DNA of 39,377 bases from a virus. Numbering within the stretch: position 1 is the stretch's first letter; each line of letters opens with the position of its first letter. A program made the position numbers and the translations under genes. The stretch is from the IMG/VR virus record IMGVR_UViG_3300045922_000817, positions 1-39,377 of that record; one strand, written 5' to 3'. Below the pieces are notes generated by a model. The model had not been told where the DNA came from and did not search any database. It was given only the letters and a program-made list of their open reading frames with translations. Shown here piece by piece: positions 1 to 39,377 of this stretch.

Positions 1-805
1 CTTGCCGTGCGCATCGCGGTGGTCGCTCGGTAGTAACCGGCAACCGGAGCGGTAAAGACGCCGGTGGAGGGGTTGTAGGCGTTGTGCGTGTCGTAGTCCC
101 GAGTCGGAAATACGACCGTCGTGTACGTTGCTGACAGCGCAGTTGTCGAGCTTGTGTATCGCGCAGCTACCGTCCGCCCATCATAGCTTCCAATCTGAAC
201 GTTCGAGCCCCAGCCGACCACTGGAATGTCAACGGTGCATTGCAAGACATCGTTGTTGCCGATGGTGAATGGTGCCGAGGTGGATATACCCGCCGCGAAG
301 TTTCCCCCAGTCGGCTTGTAAGCAAAAGTCACAGCGGACGCCCCGGCGGTGCCTAAGTATCTGGGGATAATGGGGTAGGTACTTGCACCGAAGTCGCGGA
401 ATTCACCAAAACCAAGCTGGGCTCGCTCTTCAGCTTGCGAAAGTAAGCTAGTGTCTATTGCTATCCCGCTAGGAAGGTTGATCGTGAACGGCGTCGCAAA
501 CGAAGGTGTGCCGGTAAAATTAGCCTGGAAGGTAATGGTTGCACGCCCGCCAACGCGCCAAACGTTCGCCGTAGCCGTAACGTTCGTCGAATTGGTCGAG
601 CAAGAAAATGACCCAAGATAGGTGACTGCGGCAGCGAAGGCCACCGGAGACGGAGCGATGGAGATGCGGTCAATCTTCAGCGTGTAGGCCGAATTGCTTG
701 TGGTCGCGACATGAAAGCAGAGCCGATAGCTCGTGGCCGTGGGCCCAGCCTGGAACGTCCCGGTGTAGAGCGCCCCGCCGGTGCTGTCGGCCTTCGGAAT
801 GCCGG
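1..805 (-). repeat. Window-end repeat, copy A (fibre allele with core 1)
   Basis: Positions 1-215 match 38588-38802 with only about two mismatches before the sequences part. Positions ~640-805 match ~39209-39377 with about five mismatches, most at third codon positions. Between them (about 216-637) the DNA is not alignable by eye, though both versions encode a domain of similar pattern. Copy A is 805 bp and copy B is 790 bp, a difference of 15 bp, so both keep the reading frame. Confidence 0.9.
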
Positions 806-1772
806 CGGGAGTGAGCTGAATGACTTCCGGCGTGCCTGAGGGGTCTGCGATGACGTAGACGAGAACGTCGTTTGCGACGTAGCCGGAGTTGCTCTGCGAG
901 ACAAACGAAACGGTGAGCTGTTTCCCAAGGTCCGCAGGCGCAATGGTGAAGTCGAAGGCGACGCCTTGGCCCTGTCGGTTTGCTGCGTCTTTCGACAGAA
1001 GAAAGGAGCCAATACCTTCGAGCGGCGACGACGTCGTGCGCGTCCATGTGATGTTCGGCGAGCCGCCCGCACCGGTGACCGGCGCGGGCCCCGCGGTGTT
1101 GGCATAAGTGACCCAGCCGGTTGTCGCGACCTCCGCGTCAGGATTCGAGCAGTAATTAATGCCAGCTCCGTCTCCAGAGCCGATCTTCCGCTCAAGACCA
1201 GAGGAGTTGAGAGAGTACAGATGCCCATCAGACTTAAAGTAAGTGCGGTACCGAGACGCAGCGGGATTTGGCGGCGTCGTCGTTTGGACCCACGTCACAA
1301 AGCTCGGCACCTCTTTCGAGATGACTGGCCACTCGGTGCCCGTAGAGTCTCGCGTGTACAGGTAACCATCGGTTTTTTGGTACAGCGCGAGTATGGTCGC
1401 GGCCGGTGTGGTCGGAGTAGCCTGCGAGAAAGTTAGCTGGTTTGCGACGCGGCAGCTTGAGAGAAATGATGTGAGGTTCGCGTAGTTGGTAGGTGTGACC
1501 GGAGGGGTCGCTGTTTCCGACCCTTGAAGAAGCGTAAGACCACCGCCTGCCGCCGGCACGTAGAATCGGACATTGTTCGCCGGAGTTGCGTTTGTGCCGA
1601 TGATAAGAGGATCGGTATTGAGTAGTATCTCTCGGTAGCCGGTACCGTCACCTATGTACGGTTTCAGCGTGATGATGTCGAAGTAGAACCGCCCCTGCAA
1701 CTGAGCAGGAGCAGCCGAGAGGCGCTCGAACTGCGCCTTACCAAGCTCGTTGTAGAGATTGAGTACGCCCAC
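1..1772 (-). CDS. Tail fibre / receptor-binding protein, 5' part (runs off the window)
   Basis: This frame is open from a GTG start at 1772 to the window edge, about 590 codons. GGGAGG lies just upstream of the GTG, and an in-frame TAG precedes it. The N-terminal ~35 residues (VGVLNLYNELGKAQFERL) look like a virion-attachment segment. Two short repeats of the form K-[TS]-DG-x-LY follow, typical of phage fibres. Next comes a carbohydrate-binding-like domain (around codons 255-375), a variable domain, and the start of a C1q/TNF-like jelly roll (YNPSTGVFTAPVAGYY) at the window edge. The same jelly roll continues in the 3' fragment at the other end of the window. The gene follows capsid and the 1807-2331 gene on the minus strand. 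A receptor-binding role is inferred from architecture and location. Confidence 0.88.
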   Translation of the reverse strand, partial: MGVLNLYNELGKAQFERLSAAPAQLQGRFYFDIITLKPYIGDGTGYREILLNTDPLIIGTNATPANNVRFYVPAAGGGLTLLQGSETATPPVTPTNYANLTSFLSSCRVANQLTFSQATPTTPAATILALYQKTDGYLYTRDSTGTEWPVISKEVPSFVTWVQTTTPPNPAASRYRTYFKSDGHLYSLNSSGLERKIGSGDGAGINYCSNPDAEVATTGWVTYANTAGPAPVTGAGGSPNITWTRTTSSPLEGIGSFLLSKDAANRQGQGVAFDFTIAPADLGKQLTVSFVSQSNSGYVANDVLVYVIADPSGTPEVIQLTPAGIPKADSTGGALYTGTFQAGPTATSYRLCFHVATTSNSAYTLKIDRISIAPSPVAFAAAVTYLGSFSCSTNSTNVTATANVWRVGGRATITFQANFTGTPSFATPFTINLPSGIAIDTSLLSQAEERAQLGFGEFRDFGASTYPIIPRYLGTAGASAVTFAYKPTGGNFAAGISTSAPFTIGNNDVLQCTVDIPVVGWGSNVQIGSYDGRTVAARYTSSTTALSATYTTVVFPTRDYDTHNAYNPSTGVFTAPVAGYYRATTAMRTA

Positions 1773-1806
1773 GGCGCCTCCCGGCAACTAAGACCCAATG
1801 GGCCTG

Positions 1807-10405: not shown

Positions 10406-11128
10406 ATGCGTGTGGCGATTTACGTGCGGGTCTCGACCAAAACCCAATCAACAGAGATGCAGCTAGAAGAGATAGAGCGTTATATCTCCGCTCGCGGCTG
10501 GCAAAAGGGACCGCTGTACGAAGACATCGGAACGGGACGAAGCGACCAACGCCCCGCATACAAACGGTTGATGGAAGACGCAGCGCGAGGACACATTCAA
10601 GCTGTCATCGTGTGGAAACTCGACCGCTTCGGTCGAAGCGTGAAGCACTTACTCACTGCGCTGCAAGACCTACAAACGTTCGGCGTCGCCTTCATCTCCG
10701 TCCGCGACCACATGGACTTCACAACCCCAGCAGGACGGATGATGATCACCATGCTCGCCGCAATCGCAGAGTTCGAAGCAGACCTCATCCGCGAGCGCGT
10801 GCGCGTTGGCGTAGAAGCCAAAATTGCCAAAACCGGCAGGTGGGGCCGCCACAAAGGCGAGGAAAGCAAGTGGAAGCACCTCATCCCACAGCTCGACGCG
10901 CTCCTTGCCACAAAGAAAAGCTACCGAGCTATCGCCCGCGAACTCTCTTGCCCAGCATCCTTTGTGCGAGCTTACGTCCTTCGGAAGCATCCGCCAGCGC
11001 CACAGGCGGAAGCACCACGCGACATTGAAGCGAGTGAACAGACTCCGCTGAGAAGTGCTCAACCGTTTGGACAGCAGCCCCACTGTCGCGAAGGTGGCCA
11101 CCAAATGCCGACTTCAACGCCGTGCTGA
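10406..11128 (+). CDS. Small serine recombinase (resolvase/invertase family)
   Basis: 240 aa from the ATG at 10406, with AGGGAAAG just upstream. The catalytic domain fits the family: VAIYVRVST with nucleophile Ser10 and Arg8, the arginine cluster WKLDRFGRSV (about 70-79, Arg74 and Arg77), and the dimer helix EFEADLIRERV. A hinge (TGRWGRHKG) leads to a helix-turn-helix, KKSYRAIARELSCPASFVRA, at about 183-202. The last ~35 residues look unstructured and overlap a minus-strand gene by 200 bp. The family does resolution, inversion or integration at short sites. Here it could resolve genome dimers or act on phage DNA, but no target site pair was found. Confidence 0.88.
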   Translation: MRVAIYVRVSTKTQSTEMQLEEIERYISARGWQKGPLYEDIGTGRSDQRPAYKRLMEDAARGHIQAVIVWKLDRFGRSVKHLLTALQDLQTFGVAFISVRDHMDFTTPAGRMMITMLAAIAEFEADLIRERVRVGVEAKIAKTGRWGRHKGEESKWKHLIPQLDALLATKKSYRAIARELSCPASFVRAYVLRKHPPAPQAEAPRDIEASEQTPLRSAQPFGQQPHCREGGHQMPTSTPC

Positions 11129-11563: not shown

Positions 11564-11878
11564 ATGGAAGCGGTAAAAACCGAAACTAGAAACCGTCCCT
11601 ACGTCATCGTCCGCGCGCACACCGCAGGCGTCCATGCAGGCTATCTCGAATCGCGCGACGGAACCGACGTCGTTCTCACCAATTCCCGGCGCCTGTGGAA
11701 GTGGTGCGGCGGCTCGCTGTCGGAGGTTGCGACCTACGGGCCGTCGCCGAAGGGCGAGAACAAATTCGGCGCCCGTGTTGTGCGGACAACCATCGTGAGC
11801 CCGCAGGGCCTTGAGATTGCCGAGTGCACCGAAGAAGCACGGCAGGCGATTGAGGCGATCCCGGAGTGGCGGCGATGA
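11564..11878 (+). CDS. DUF6948-like phage protein
   Basis: 104 aa from the ATG at 11564, with AAGGAG at 11553-11558. The sequence follows the pattern I associate with DUF6948: YVIVRAHTAGVHAGYL near the N-terminus, VVLTNSRRLWKWCGG, a middle LSEVATYGPS, and the C-terminal IAECTEEARQAIEAIPEWRR. Members are widespread in phages and have no established function. Its TGA overlaps the start of the first Gly/Tyr-rich gene (ATGA), so the two are translationally coupled. Its last ~15 codons reappear as a free-standing 17-codon frame before the second Gly/Tyr-rich gene, which points to a local duplication. Confidence 0.75.
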   Translation: MEAVKTETRNRPYVIVRAHTAGVHAGYLESRDGTDVVLTNSRRLWKWCGGSLSEVATYGPSPKGENKFGARVVRTTIVSPQGLEIAECTEEARQAIEAIPEWRR

Positions 11879-12345
11879 ACGAAAATAGCGGCGCAGGCTA
11901 CGGCGCAGGCTCCGGGGACGGCTCCGGCGCGGGCTATGGCGACGGCGACGGCTACGGCGACGGCGACGGCTCCGGCTACGGCGACGGCACCGGCTACGGC
12001 CTCGGCGACGGCGACGGCCACGGTTCTGATGCCGGTGATGGCTACGGCTACGGCTACGGCGACGGTACCGGCTACGGCTACGGCTACGGCTACGGCGAAG
12101 GCACCGGTTCCGGCACCAGTGACGGCTACGGTTACGGCTACGGCTACGGTGATGGCTACGGTTACAGCGGCGGCTATGGCTACGGCTTCGGTTACGGCTA
12201 CGGCTCCGGCTACGGCGACGGCTACGACGACGGCTATGGCAACGGCTACGGCGACGGCTCCGGCTCCGGCTCTGCCGACGGCGGCGGCTACGGCTACGGC
12301 TCTGGCGACGGCGCCGGTTCTGCCAATGGCAAAGGGTACGGCTGA
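11875..12345 (+). CDS. Gly/Tyr/Asp-rich low-complexity protein, copy 1
   Basis: 156 aa from the ATG at 11875 (MNENSGAGYGAGSG), which overlaps the upstream stop. The protein consists almost entirely of G alternating with Y, D, S, T and a few F, A, N and E, for example GYGDGDGYGDGSGYGDG. Nearly every second residue is glycine. Codons are highly uniform (GGC, TAC, GAC). There is no signal peptide, cysteine or hydrophobic segment. The reverse strand is also open but encodes Ala/Val repeats and lacks an SD and a partner gene, so the plus frame is preferred. Function is unknown. Candidates are a disordered or phase-separating protein, or a DNA mimic given its acidity. Confidence 0.7.
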   Translation: MNENSGAGYGAGSGDGSGAGYGDGDGYGDGDGSGYGDGTGYGLGDGDGHGSDAGDGYGYGYGDGTGYGYGYGYGEGTGSGTSDGYGYGYGYGDGYGYSGGYGYGFGYGYGSGYGDGYDDGYGNGYGDGSGSGSADGGGYGYGSGDGAGSANGKGYG

Positions 12346-12393: not shown

Positions 12394-12429
12394 AAAGCGA
12401 TCGAGGTTATTCCCGAGTGGAGACGATGA
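12376..12429 (+). CDS. 17-aa leader peptide, remnant of the DUF6948-like C-terminus
   Basis: The complete frame is MHDEARKAIEVIPEWRR, with GGGAGAAGAG upstream and a TGA that overlaps the ATG of the second Gly/Tyr-rich gene. It matches the last residues of the 11564-11878 protein (EEARQAIEAIPEWRR). The likely history is duplication of the coupled gene pair followed by loss of most of the first gene. What remains would still load ribosomes and couple translation into the second copy. Confidence 0.65.
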   Translation: MHDEARKAIEVIPEWRR

Positions 12430-12818
12430 ATCAGCATTACGGCCCCGGCACCGGCTACGGCTACGGCTTCGGCGACGGCGAAGGCACCGGCTCCGGCAAC
12501 AGCGACGGCAACGGCAACGGCTACGGCGACGGCTCCGGCTCCGCCGACGGCTCCGGCTACGGTTACGGCTACGGCGACGGCTACGGCTTCGGCTCCGGCT
12601 ACGGCTCCGGCTACGGCTTCGGCTCCGGCTACGGCTGCGGCTCCGGCGACGTTGGCGGCTACGGCTACGGCTTCGGCGACGGTGACGGCGACGGCTCCGG
12701 CGCCGGCTACGGCGACGGCTACGGCTACGGCTACGGCTACGGCGAAGGCTCCGGCTACGGCTACGGCTACGGCGAAGGCTCCGGCTACGGCTACGGATCC
12801 GGAGAAGGGGACGGATGA
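12426..12818 (+). CDS. Gly/Tyr/Asp-rich low-complexity protein, copy 2
   Basis: 130 aa from the ATG at 12426 (MNQHYGPGTGYGYGFGDGEG). It has the same composition as copy 1 but a different order of repeats, with more GSGYG and GFGSG units and one cysteine (GYGCGSGD). It ends in YGSGEGDG. The start overlaps the stop of the 17-aa leader, as copy 1 overlaps its upstream gene. The copies are paralogous in layout, yet the repeat units cannot be aligned one to one, which fits repeat slippage after duplication. Function is unknown. Confidence 0.7.
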   Translation: MNQHYGPGTGYGYGFGDGEGTGSGNSDGNGNGYGDGSGSADGSGYGYGYGDGYGFGSGYGSGYGFGSGYGCGSGDVGGYGYGFGDGDGDGSGAGYGDGYGYGYGYGEGSGYGYGYGEGSGYGYGSGEGDG

Positions 12819-14169: not shown

Positions 14170-14520
14170 ACGCGCGCGCGGGGCTTAGACGGCGGTCAGT
14201 ACACGCAACAGCCCGCCCACGCGCTCCCCCACGCCTTCCCCCCCACATATCACGCGCGCGCGCGCGCGCGTAATATGTGGGCCGCTTCATCTAACGCGCG
14301 CGCGCGCGCGTTAGATGTTCGCTGATTCGTTTACCGGCAGAATACAGCGCCGAATTCTTCAATGATTTCAAGGCGCATTCAACCGGAATTCGCTAGGCTC
14401 GAATACTCTAGTGGACGAACCGACCAGGCATGGAACGCGCGCGCGCGCGTTCTACCACGCGCGCACGCGCGCGTATTCCAACATGCGCGCGTGATCGCGC
14501 GCGCGGGCGCGCGTGTTTAA
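14170..14520. repeat. Array of (CG)n-core palindromes
   Basis: At least five hairpins share a long alternating CG core but have different arms. At 14242-14281 a 40-bp palindrome has arms CCCACATAT and one mismatch. At 14288-14317 a 30-bp palindrome with arms CATCTAA is perfect. At 14433-14452 a 20-bp palindrome with arms GAA is perfect. Near-palindromes follow at about 14455-14475 and 14479-14518. A further CG run lies at about 14170-14180. No coding frame is supported. Alternating CG of this length favours Z-DNA or cruciform extrusion. Function is unknown. Confidence 0.85.
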
Positions 14521-15289: not shown

Positions 15290-15504
15290 GACGCATCCCG
15301 TATTCTCCCCGAATACGCCCTTCGGTTCCGACAGACACATCGCGCGTACCGACTGCCGCAGAATAAGCCTCAGAATACGGCTTAAACGCCTTCAGGGGAC
15401 GCCCGCGCCGCGCGCCCGTACCATGACCACTCCCACGCCCGTCCGACGCAATAGAAGGCCGCCTAGGCCGTATTCTCCCCGAATCCGCCTGGCGGTCTCG
15501 CGTG
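15290..15504. repeat. Non-coding stretch with repeated CGTATTCTCCCCGAAT words
   Basis: No supported gene. The word CGTATTCTCCCCGAAT occurs at about 15299 and 15470, and CAGAATACGGC occurs at about 15372. They belong to a GAATACG motif scattered through 14.3-15.9 kb. The rest is GC-rich and featureless to me. Confidence 0.6.
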
Positions 15505-15597
15505 CACGCAGGCGCGCAGGCATGCAGGCGCGCAGGCATGCAGGCGTGCAGGCATGCAGGCGCGCAGGCGTGCAGGCGCGCAGGCGCGCGGGCGCGC
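15505..15597. repeat. 8-bp minisatellite, about 11 units of [CT]GCAGGC[GA]
   Basis: Units alternate between CGCAGGCG, CGCAGGCA, TGCAGGCG and TGCAGGCA, then decay to CGCGGGCG and a CG run. Eight is not a multiple of three, so the repeat would shift any reading frame. Open frames crossing it are artefacts of the repeat. Confidence 0.85.
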
Positions 15598-15991
15598 GCG
15601 TGAAGCGTCGGGTCCCTCGCGTCGAGCTCGTGCGCACACAGGCAGAGTACGCAGCGCGTTAGAGGCGCTCACGCGCACACAGGCAGAATGCGCAGCGCGT
15701 CAGAAGGTACTCGGTCGGACCCTCGCGCGCGCGCGCGGGCGAACGCGTGAAGCGCCGGGTCCTTCGCGTCGCGCTCGAGCGCATGCAGGCAGACTACGCA
15801 GTGAGGCAGAGGGCGCTCGGTCGGACCTTCGCGTGCGCGCGCGGGCCCGCGGGCGTGCGAGCGGGCGGGCGTGCGCGTGAAGCATCGGGTCCCTCGCGTC
15901 GCGCTTGTGCGCACACAGGCAGAATACGCAGTCAATCAGCGCGCGCTTGGACACGTTCAGGCGCGAAGCCTCGGTTCCTTCGCGCGTCTCG
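15598..15991. repeat. Degenerate tandem repeats of about 130-147 bp
   Basis: A ~57-bp element starting GCGTGAAGC, containing CGGGTCC-[CT]-TCGCGTCG and ending CAGGCAGA-[GCA]-TACGCAG, occurs at 15598, 15745 and 15875. A partial copy of its 3' part lies at 15671 and a degenerate copy of its 5' part at about 15961. A second word, CTCGGTCGGACC followed by a CG-rich run, occurs at about 15710 and 15815. Several long frames are open on both strands, as expected for repeats without A/T-rich stops, but none has an SD or protein-like composition. Confidence 0.8.
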
Positions 15992-21436: not shown

Positions 21437-22387
21437 ATGACTGCATTCGCTCGCACTGCGGTCGTGCTAATGCTTGGGCTTTTGACGCCCTTGCATGCCG
21501 ACACGCGTCTTATCAATGGCTCGCCGGTGCCGCCGGAAGAGCATCCTGAGATCATCAACATTCGCACTGGGAGTGCTGGGTGTACTGCTACGGTGATTGG
21601 CCCGAGGGTGGGTATTACCGCCGCTCACTGTGGTGCCAATGGGGCCACGACGCAGGCTCGCATCAACGGCAAGGTTTACTCCGGTAGGATTACGCGTTCG
21701 AGCCTTTATCCGCGTCGGGATCACGACGTGGCACTCATCCTCTTCTCCGAGGTGGTAGCGCTGCCGCCGGGCAAGAGTTACATGACGGTTACGACAGTAG
21801 CGCCGTCGGTCGGCATGGTGTTGCGGTTGTTTGGCTATGGCTGCACAAGCGCCGGCGGCGGCGGCGGCAACGATGGCGTGCTTCGGCGCGGTGACACGAG
21901 GGTGACGGGCTTCTCCGGCTTCGACGCCGTGTCGAAGACCGTTGGTGGTGCTGCTCTCTGCTATGGCGATTCGGGCGGTCCTGGGTTGCGCGAGGTAGGC
22001 GGTCGGTGGCTACTGACGACGATTAACTCCAAGGGCAACATCAGGGACACGAACTACACGGCGCGTCTCGATTTGCCGGAGTCGAAGGCGCTGTTTGACG
22101 ATTTCATCGCGGCGAACAAGGTCGATATTTGCGGCATCAACAGGGATTGCTTCGGTGCCGCACCGCCTAGCGGTGATATTGTCGTGGAAAACGAGGCGGT
22201 GAAGATTGTCGTCACTCGAAAAACGCAGTCGTTGGATATCGACTACGTGAGAGTCACGGCTGAGAACTTGGCTCGCTTTTTGAGCAGCCAAGTCACCATG
22301 ACCGACTCGGATGTTGTCCATCCCATTGGTCCGCCACCGGACTTAGAGCATGATATTGTTAATCCCATAGGGCCTGCACAGCCCTAA
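21437..22387 (+). CDS. Exported trypsin-like serine protease (S1 family)
   Basis: 316 aa, ATG at 21437 with GAGGAG about nine bases upstream. Residues 1-21 (MTAFARTAVVLMLGLLTPLHA) are a Sec signal peptide. The mature chain begins DTRLINGS, where cutting after Arg would give the usual S1 N-terminus. The triad is His64 (TAAHC), Asp97 (HDVAL) and Ser179 (YGDSGGP). A C-terminal extension (about 230-316) contains two N/H-PIGP repeats and no recognised domain. The enzyme should act outside the cytoplasm on protein substrates. Such proteases are rare in phages. It may be host-derived cargo, a lysis aid or a modifier of host surface proteins. Confidence 0.88.
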   Translation: MTAFARTAVVLMLGLLTPLHADTRLINGSPVPPEEHPEIINIRTGSAGCTATVIGPRVGITAAHCGANGATTQARINGKVYSGRITRSSLYPRRDHDVALILFSEVVALPPGKSYMTVTTVAPSVGMVLRLFGYGCTSAGGGGGNDGVLRRGDTRVTGFSGFDAVSKTVGGAALCYGDSGGPGLREVGGRWLLTTINSKGNIRDTNYTARLDLPESKALFDDFIAANKVDICGINRDCFGAAPPSGDIVVENEAVKIVVTRKTQSLDIDYVRVTAENLARFLSSQVTMTDSDVVHPIGPPPDLEHDIVNPIGPAQP

Positions 22388-37692: not shown

Positions 37693-39377
37693 CTAACGGA
37701 AATGCTCCTCAACGATAATGACACCAGAGCCTCCTGAGCCGCCGTTGTGATTGGTGCCAGAGCCAGGGCTCCCGCCAGCGCCCACCGTGTAGGAATAAGT
37801 CGGAAGCGGGTTGTAGATAATAAACTCGATCCCTTCCCCGCTATTGCCGCCAGAGCCGGCCCAATCGTTCGCACTGCCAGAAGTCGAGCTTCCACCACCG
37901 CCACCGCCGCCGGTGTTAGCTAATGCAGCAAATCCACCACCACCACCATTACCTTGACCGCCGCCGCCCAAGAACGACGAGCCGCCCTTGCCGCCGGAGA
38001 TTGTTACGCCACTGCCGCTTGCAGTTCTTCCGCCCGATTGCCCGATGTCCGAGCGGTAGATGTTTACCACCACATAATTAGGCGCATCGGTGCCGGATGG
38101 TGCCGCACTGGCATTTGCCGAACGCCCGCCTGTGCCGCCTTTGGCCACAGCAGTACCAAAGGTCGTGTCACCACCGGCGCCGCCGGCAGAAGCGTTCGAC
38201 GTAGTGTTATTGCCACCACCACCACCGCCGCCACCCACCATTAGCACGCGCAGATACTTCGTGCCCGCCGCCACGTTATGCGTGCCCGAGCCGGACGTGT
38301 AGCGCGTCACTTTCGGCGGAACGTAGTCTCCCGCCGCCAGCGTCGAGCGGCCGGGCACGAGCGAGATTTCGAAAACGTTCTCGGTGGCGTCTCCGCTCGC
38401 CGACACTGAAACAGAAGTCACAGCCCGAAGATCGAGCGTGTCTCCGGCATTTAGGAACACCTCACAGGCGCCTTGAGCGCCAAGCTGGAACGTGGCCGTG
38501 GTAGCGGCGTAGTTGAAGTTTTGTTTGATCGAAGTGCCGTTTTTGCGCCAGTTGAAAAAGAATCCGTTGTTAGCCGCCCACGAAGCGCTTGCCGTGCGCA
38601 TCGCGGTGGTCGCTCGGTAGTAACCGGCAACCGGAGCGGTAAAGACGCCGGTGGAGGGGTTGTAGGCGTTGTGCGTGTCGTAGTCCCGAGTCGGAAATAC
38701 GACCGTCGTGTACGATGCCGACAGCGCAGTTGTCGAGCTTGTGTATCGCGCAGCTACCGTCCGCCCATCATAGCTTCCAATCTGAACGTTCGAGCCCCAG
38801 CCCGCGATGGGAATACGAAGCTGATAAGTGACGCGGTCGTTGTTTGCGAACGCACTCGAATCGACAGCGTTCGACGTGTCGTTTCGGACGAACGAGACCG
38901 AGGTCGCGCTGTTGCGGCGTGCATAACCGCCACGAGACGCGGCCGAGCCCGAATCGTCGTACCAACCCCAGAAGCCTAGAATTTGGCTCAAGGAATCGTT
39001 GCCGTCGAAAGCAACCGTGTCATCGATCGAATACCCAGAAGGCAGCGAGACAGTGAATACACTTGCCGCGCCCGTGCCACTATAGCGCACGGCCCCTTCA
39101 ATCATCATGTAACGCCCAGCGCGCCACCAGCGAGCGTTATTGGCTGCAACACCGGTGTTTGAGTTGAGAGTTGGCGTATAGGCCACCGGGTCCGTCACCG
39201 CTGCCGCGAATGCCACCGGAGACGGAGCGATGGAGACGCGATCGATTTTCAGCGTGTAGGCCGAATTGCTTGTGGTCGCGACATGAAAGCACAGCCGATA
39301 GCTCGTGGCCGTGGGCCCAGCCTGGAACGTCCCGGTGTAGAGCGCCCCGCCGGTGCTGTCGGCCTTCGGAATGCCGG
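37693..39377 (-). CDS. Tail fibre / receptor-binding protein, 3' part (starts beyond the window)
   Basis: The frame is open from the window edge to a TAG at 37693, about 561 codons. A GTG at 39216 lies inside the same open frame but is not the true start, because the sequence upstream is homologous to codons inside the 5' fragment. From the edge: carbohydrate-binding-like domain, variable domain (about 39209 down to 38803), C1q/TNF-like jelly roll (YNPSTGVFTAPVAGYY), and a long glycine-rich tip (VLMVGGGGGGGGNN onward) ending GSGVIIVEEHFR. Gly-rich tips with a final V-I-I-V-E-E strand are common in adhesins. Receptor binding by the variable and tip domains is inferred. Confidence 0.88.
   Translation of the reverse strand, partial: GIPKADSTGGALYTGTFQAGPTATSYRLCFHVATTSNSAYTLKIDRVSIAPSPVAFAAAVTDPVAYTPTLNSNTGVAANNARWWRAGRYMMIEGAVRYSGTGAASVFTVSLPSGYSIDDTVAFDGNDSLSQILGFWGWYDDSGSAASRGGYARRNSATSVSFVRNDTSNAVDSSAFANNDRVTYQLRIPIAGWGSNVQIGSYDGRTVAARYTSSTTALSASYTTVVFPTRDYDTHNAYNPSTGVFTAPVAGYYRATTAMRTASASWAANNGFFFNWRKNGTSIKQNFNYAATTATFQLGAQGACEVFLNAGDTLDLRAVTSVSVSASGDATENVFEISLVPGRSTLAAGDYVPPKVTRYTSGSGTHNVAAGTKYLRVLMVGGGGGGGGNNTTSNASAGGAGGDTTFGTAVAKGGTGGRSANASAAPSGTDAPNYVVVNIYRSDIGQSGGRTASGSGVTISGGKGGSSFLGGGGQGNGGGGGFAALANTGGGGGGGSSTSGSANDWAGSGGNSGEGIEFIIYNPLPTYSYTVGAGGSPGSGTNHNGGSGGSGVIIVEEHFR
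38588..39377 (-). repeat. Window-end repeat, copy B (fibre allele with core 2)
   Basis: Counterpart of 1-805: the flanks at 38588-38802 and ~39209-39377 are nearly identical to the other copy, while the core at about 38803-39209 differs. Overlaying the two copies restores a single in-frame fibre gene. Both copies have the same orientation, so they are not an inverted pair. Confidence 0.9.

What the first reader, a model, noticed from the sequence alone, without database searches (positions are those of the whole stretch)
38588..39377. Two versions of the receptor-binding domain at the two ends of the contig
Positions 1-805 and 38588-39377 are the same fibre-gene segment with near-identical flanks (about two mismatches in 215 bp and about five in 165 bp) around cores that do not align as DNA. 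Overlaying them gives 2667 bp (889 codons) with core A or 2652 bp (884 codons) with core B, both in frame; direct end-to-end joining gives 3457 bp, out of frame. The simplest reading is a circular genome of ~38.6 kb whose assembly stopped because the population carries two fibre alleles, swapped as a cassette by recombination in the conserved flanks. A single genome with two tandem fibre genes or modules is the alternative.
Basis: partly seen in the sequence, partly recalled or inferred. Interest (0 to 1): 0.8.

Follow-up and report, generated by a model that had tools for sequence, protein, structure and literature searches.

The report
Two tail-fibre variants break phage contig
This virus contig ends at both sides inside the same tail-fibre gene because the sampled phages carried two interchangeable versions of one inner fibre domain, one of which also sits in an otherwise unrelated phage; this is a clear example of a known kind of phage variation.

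Summary
Window 1-805 and 38588-39377 are the same fibre-gene segment: 2 mismatches in 215 bp and 10 in 184 bp of flank, around cores (216-621 = A; 38803-39193 = B) that do not align as DNA. Overlaid, both give one intact gene (893 or 888 aa); joined end to end, the frame breaks.

Three things are new. (1) The longest exact repeat in the window is exactly 127 bp and starts at base 1. 127 is the largest k-mer of JGI metaSPAdes runs, so the left end is an assembly-graph branch point: a closed 38,587-bp A loop plus a B branch. (2) Core B is not confined to this phage. A contig with unrelated TerL and portal (L017) carries it in a 990-bp, 91%-identical module. A third phage (L018) shares 400 identical bp of that module with L017 and also breaks inside it. 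(3) Site patterns put a recombination breakpoint in the N-side flank and suggest that B is the older arrangement and A the import.

The variable piece is an inner domain between a CBM-like and a C1q-like domain, so 'receptor-binding domain' is not shown. A and B as alleles of one phage species is most likely; B in another co-resident phage with the same fibre is not excluded. Known kind.

The parts
1..127 (.). Exact 127-bp repeat of 38588-38714; the longest exact repeat in the window, starting at its first base; read as the K=127 branch vertex of the assembly graph
   Evidence: JGI metaSPAdes k list ending in 127 (PMC7171226); metaSPAdes contigs share maxK end sequences at breaks (PMC10914622)
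1..215 (-). C-side conserved flank, copy next to core A (start of the C1q-like domain)
216..621 (-). Core A: beta-rich domain of about 135 aa (LPSG...GWGS family), version A
622..805 (-). N-side conserved flank, copy next to core A (end of the CBM-like domain); carries the recombination signal between 720 and 621
806..1787 (-). Fibre gene, N-terminal part (TTG start at 1787): unique N-terminus 1176-1787 and most of the CBM-like domain (624-1175)
37693..38587 (-). Fibre gene, C-terminal part: glycine-rich end (37693-38289) and most of the C1q-like domain (38290-38787)
38588..38802 (-). C-side conserved flank, copy next to core B
38803..39193 (-). Core B: same domain family, version B; close DNA homologue in L017 (IMGVR_UViG_3300044993_000124)
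39194..39377 (-). N-side conserved flank, copy next to core B; its last 85 bp are identical to 721-805 and the contig stops there

Best explanation
The record is one turn of a circular (or circularly permuted / terminally redundant) podovirus-like genome of 38,587 bp carrying fibre version A, plus 663 bp of an alternative path carrying version B. In the K=127 graph the A genome closes on itself at the 127-mer 1-127 = 38588-38714; B leaves at that vertex and its path ends 85 bp after its last difference from A. Biologically, A and B are two alleles of one inner domain of the tail fibre, between a CBM-like and a C1q-like domain. Such CBM-core-C1q cassettes circulate among unrelated phages. The A-type core probably entered this lineage by homologous recombination, with the N-side crossover in the last ~185 bp of the CBM-like domain and the other crossover at or beyond the GWGS boundary. 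The expected consequence, inferred and not shown, is a change in what the fibre binds. Shown: the sequence relations, the 127-bp signature, intact genes by overlay, core B in another phage, and the breakpoint pattern. Inferred: co-existence in one species, direction (B older, A imported), effect on host range.
For: Exact 127-bp repeat at base 1 and JGI's k list 33,55,77,99,127. In simulation the A genome closes V1 to V1 in every run in which a B branch was seen, and at intermediate B coverage B ends as a tip or rejoins. Single open frames by overlay and frame break on direct joining. N-flank codon differences 10 of 11 synonymous, so both versions look functional. Site patterns: in 721-805 A=B while L017 differs from both at 6 sites; in 622-720 A differs from B at 10 sites and L017 has B's base at 8; Fisher p = 0.0015. 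B against L017 is 91% over 990 bp straight through the core, while L017's TerL and portal are unrelated to the window's by BLASTP. L018: 400 bp identical to L017, other portal and capsid, contig stops inside the module. Same domain order in L004, L008, L009, L012, L014; L010 lacks the core. Bellas et al. report that assemblers stop at competing variant regions (PMC7468147).
Against: No reads, so neither coverage nor linkage of B to the rest of this genome is shown. L017/L018 show that a near-identical fibre module can sit in phages with different head genes, so B might belong to another phage. The right end is 85 bp, not 127 bp, into the exact flank; that needs a coverage drop-out or a further variant. 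B being the older form rests on 8 of 10 sites (two-sided binomial p = 0.11). No close relative of core A was found.
Confidence: 0.68

Rival explanations
1. Core B belongs to a different co-resident phage species that shares this fibre gene (at least the identical 127-bp and 85-bp flank stretches); the contig end is a chimeric path into that phage.
For: L017 and L018 are phages with unrelated portals that share 400 identical bp of this very module. The assembler would follow such a shared stretch.
Against: The distal 85 bp of B's N-side flank match A exactly and differ from L017/L018 at 6 sites, so B has this phage's own flank on that side too. No other IMG/VR contig carries the C1q/Gly-rich part or the YDGRTV[AV]ARY stretch, except L017; near-identical records may however be withheld from these searches.
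Confidence: 0.18
2. One genome carries both cores as tandem fibre genes or tandem cassettes in one gene, and the piece between them is missing from the contig.
For: L012 has two core/C1q cassettes in one 988-aa fibre, and L004 and L014 have doubled C1q domains, so tandem cassettes exist in relatives. A longer repeat would also start the A edge 127 bp before the divergence.
Against: Direct joining breaks the frame. At equal copy number B should rejoin A, as it did in 40 of 40 simulations at 60x, instead of stopping 42 bp short. The L012 cassettes are diverged, not near-identical.
Confidence: 0.08
3. Programmed switching inside one lineage: a diversity-generating retroelement, or a site-specific inversion or cassette switch.
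For: A serine recombinase (PF00239, 1e-41) lies at 10418-11128.
Against: Neither core nor a silent relative of one occurs elsewhere in the genome. The difference is a replacement with graded flank divergence, not an inversion or adenine-targeted substitutions. No reverse transcriptase was noted among the ORFs, though not every ORF was profile-searched.
Confidence: 0.03
4. Pure assembly artefact: core B is a misassembled or foreign piece with no biological counterpart in a fibre gene.
For: B sits at a contig end, where chimeras collect.
Against: B is in frame, of the same domain family and length, with mostly synonymous flank differences, and has a 91-92% identical counterpart inside a fibre gene of another phage.
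Confidence: 0.03

Closest known systems
Allelic 'metagenomic island' variants within phage populations (Bellas et al. 2020, PMC7468147)
   Same: Otherwise stable phage genomes with interchangeable allelic variants of single genes; assemblers stop at such regions and contigs break there.
   Different: That study closed variants with reads across sites; here two versions are seen at the two ends of one contig and the swapped unit is one domain inside a gene.
Tail-fibre / host-recognition module sharing between distant phage families (Alteromonas phages A5 and V22, PMC10579305)
   Same: A fibre module shared by phages with unrelated structural genes.
   Different: There the whole module with its chaperone is shared; here a CBM-core-C1q cassette without any identified chaperone.
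Recombination within the tail-fibre gene between phage genera (Litunavirus / Luzeptimavirus, PMC9786124)
   Same: Recombination concentrated in the fibre gene.
   Different: Cultured Pseudomonas phages; kinship of the fibre domains was not tested here.
Podoviridae sp. ct8d5349 (MW202898), 'caprin-2 domain protein'
   Same: Similar size (38.7 kb circular) and a fibre with the same CBM-core-C1q order; core A 34% and core B 31% identical.
   Different: Of the other window genes tested, only the SNF2-type helicase shows weak similarity (27%); a different phage.

Membership tests
Within-species allelic variant of a phage host-recognition gene | Two alternative sequences at one locus with near-identical flanks on both sides | tested here: met
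Within-species allelic variant of a phage host-recognition gene | Each version gives an intact gene in the same genome context | tested here: met
   (by overlay)
Within-species allelic variant of a phage host-recognition gene | Both versions linked by reads to the same genome | not testable with these tools
   no reads or coverage available
Within-species allelic variant of a phage host-recognition gene | The variable piece determines host range | not testable with these tools
   no isolate; the piece lies between CBM-like and C1q-like domains
Horizontally exchanged fibre module | Close DNA homologue in a phage with unrelated core genes | tested here: met
   L017: 91% over 990 bp, TerL and portal without significant BLASTP match
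Horizontally exchanged fibre module | Recombination breakpoint in the flank | tested here: met
   site-pattern switch between 721-805 and 622-720, p = 0.0015
Diversity-generating retroelement | Template repeat / variable repeat pair plus reverse transcriptase | tested here: not met
   no second copy of either core; RT not noted, but not every ORF was profile-searched
Invertase-switched fibre (Gin/Cin type) | Alternative segment present in the genome in inverted orientation | tested here: not met
   cores occur only at 216-621 and 38803-39193, same orientation; neither strand holds another copy
Direct terminal repeats of a linear phage genome | Identical sequence at both ends | tested here: not met
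   the ends share flanks but differ in the core; the record is classed 'linear', no end repeats

The most novel reading that the evidence does not exclude
A defined domain slot (CBM / core / C1q) acts as a community-wide exchange point: unrelated phages in one habitat draw alternative cores from a common pool through the conserved ends of the neighbouring domains, so that tropism variants are shared across phage families rather than within one lineage.
Probability: 0.2. Interest if true: 0.55.

Novelty: new member of a known kind. Interest (0 to 1): 0.33.

Why it matters
It turns an apparent oddity at contig ends into a closed genome plus a fibre polymorphism, and shows that the polymorphic unit is a single inner domain shared with a phage that has unrelated head genes. 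Contigs that break inside fibre genes can therefore be read as markers of allele exchange. The exact-K repeat gives a simple test for calling such records circular although IMG/VR classes them as linear.

Tried and rejected
Single-sequence searches of IMG/VR with the fibre N-terminus, capsid, TerL and C1q/Gly-rich C-terminus gave no relatives, so no close sister genome with a third core could be compared. GenBank phages gave only MW202898 for the fibre. Structure models are weak over both cores, too weak to assign a fold to the core; only the CBM-like and C1q-like neighbours are readable. The top hit of the B model is the TM4 gp23 receptor-binding domain (9n6a), but with TM 0.28 it is only a lead. 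The idea that both ends carry the K=127 signature was tested and fails: the right exact stretch is 85 bp. Tandem genes, inversion and DGR were considered and are ranked low.

Full report
OBSERVATION. The window is a whole IMG/VR virus record of 39,377 bp classed 'linear'. Its first 805 bp and last 790 bp are two versions of one segment of a minus-strand fibre gene. The left flank (1-215 against 38588-38802) has mismatches only at 128 and 132. The right flank (622-805 against 39194-39377) has ten, crowded towards the core. The cores have no DNA similarity but are about 32% identical as proteins over the whole domain. Overlaying the ends gives single genes of 2682 bp (893 aa, core A) and 2667 bp (888 aa, core B) from the TTG at 1787. 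Joining the ends directly breaks the frame.

WHY THE CONTIG ENDS THERE. The longest exact repeat in the window is exactly 127 bp and begins at base 1 (1-127 = 38588-38714); the next are 85 and 83 bp. A JGI assembly described in the literature used metaSPAdes with k 33,55,77,99,127 (PMC7171226), and metaSPAdes leaves end sequences of maxK at graph breaks (PMC10914622). The left end is therefore read as a branch vertex, not a natural end. The simplest graph is a loop V1 to V1 (38,587 bp, core A) plus a B edge from V1. The B edge stops 85 bp after its last difference from A, 42 bp before it could merge at K=127. In a simple simulation with 150-bp reads, loop plus dead-end B is the usual outcome up to moderate B coverage, whereas B always rejoins at 60x; dead ends as long as here appeared only around 30x. 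The short right side is thus compatible with B being the minority version, but it could also be another branch. That this assembler and K apply to this very record is an inference from the number 127.

WHAT THE VARIABLE PIECE IS. Order in the fibre: unique N-terminus; CBM-like domain (Foldseek: CBM4/16/22 modules, TM by target about 0.6-0.7); core; C1q-like domain (PF00386 above the gathering score for the C-terminal part; Foldseek C1q heads); glycine-rich end. The same order CBM-core-C1q occurs in contigs L008, L009, L012 and L014 and in MW202898, while L010 has CBM followed by C1q without a core. The core is a removable, replaceable unit. Models of the core itself are poor, so its fold and its role in binding are open. 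'Receptor-binding domain' is a reasonable guess, not a result.

THE OTHER PHAGES. Searching with core B and with the CBM-like part found L017 (IMGVR_UViG_3300044993_000124, 6.5 kb) and L018 (IMGVR_UViG_3300044940_000566, 8.4 kb). L017 matches version B at 91% over 990 bp, from codon 210 through core B and some 16-20 codons into the C1q-like domain, with a different N-terminus and different sequence after that. Its TerL and portal, and the portal and capsid of L018, have no significant BLASTP match to the window's. L017 and L018 share 400 identical bp of the module, and L018's contig stops inside it. So the module moves between phages with unrelated heads, recently in the case of L017/L018, and contigs break there repeatedly. 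L018 stops before the core, so its core version is unknown.

RECOMBINATION SIGNAL. In 721-805 A and B are identical and L017 differs from both at 6 sites. In 622-720 A and B differ at 10 sites, L017 shares B's base at 8 and A's at 2, and only 2 sites have A=B with L017 different. The change of pattern has Fisher p = 0.0015. Ten of eleven N-side codon differences up to the core boundary are synonymous, so relaxed constraint does not explain the gradient. B stays at a fairly steady distance from L017 through flank and core, while A departs, so the likely history is B first, A imported with about 100 bp of its own flank. Direction alone is weak (8 of 10 sites, p = 0.11).

HOW IT WORKS, MOST LIKELY. 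Phages co-infecting a host recombine in the conserved ends of the domains next to the core and exchange the core. The phage population then holds two fibre versions that differ in one inner domain. Altered binding is expected from precedent (fibre and host-recognition recombination: PMC10579305; PMC9786124; population allele variants: PMC7468147) but was not tested here.

ALTERNATIVES. B could sit in another co-resident phage with the same fibre (0.18): the L017/L018 case makes this realistic, while the exact A-type distal flank on B speaks against it. Tandem cassettes (0.08) are attested in L012 but do not fit the frame break and the unmerged B end. Programmed switching (0.03) lacks any second copy. 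Pure artefact (0.03) is contradicted by the intact B homologue in L017.

NOVELTY. Known kind: modular fibre evolution and allelic variants that break assemblies (Bellas et al. state that assemblers stop at such regions and that many incomplete contigs appeared broken there, PMC7468147). What is added is a clean, single-record example with a K-mer explanation, a domain-level definition of the swapped piece and a close relative of one version in an unrelated phage.

LIMITS.

Noticed in passing
L017 5525-5924 and L018 6055-6454: 400 bp are exactly identical between two phages with unrelated portals, from two metagenomes: a very recent fibre-module transfer.
   Followed up: partly
21437-22387 (+): Trypsin-like serine protease (PF00089, 3e-12) with a signal-peptide-like start and TAAHC / GDSGGP motifs, unusual cargo for a phage genome.
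   Followed up: no
10418-11128 (+): Serine resolvase/invertase (PF00239, 1e-41); a 38%-identical relative lies directly upstream of the terminase gene in the Megaira phage OP381185.
   Followed up: no
11866-12345 and 12417-12818 (+): Two ORFs of GYG/DGYG repeats (Gly/Tyr-rich low-complexity proteins).
   Followed up: no
15480-15605 and 14255-14334: An 8-bp tandem array of GCRYGCAG type and two (CG)n tracts in a region of direct repeats.
   Followed up: no
L012 4345-7311: One 988-aa fibre with two core / C1q-like cassettes around a CBM-like domain, showing that cassettes can also be stacked.
   Followed up: partly
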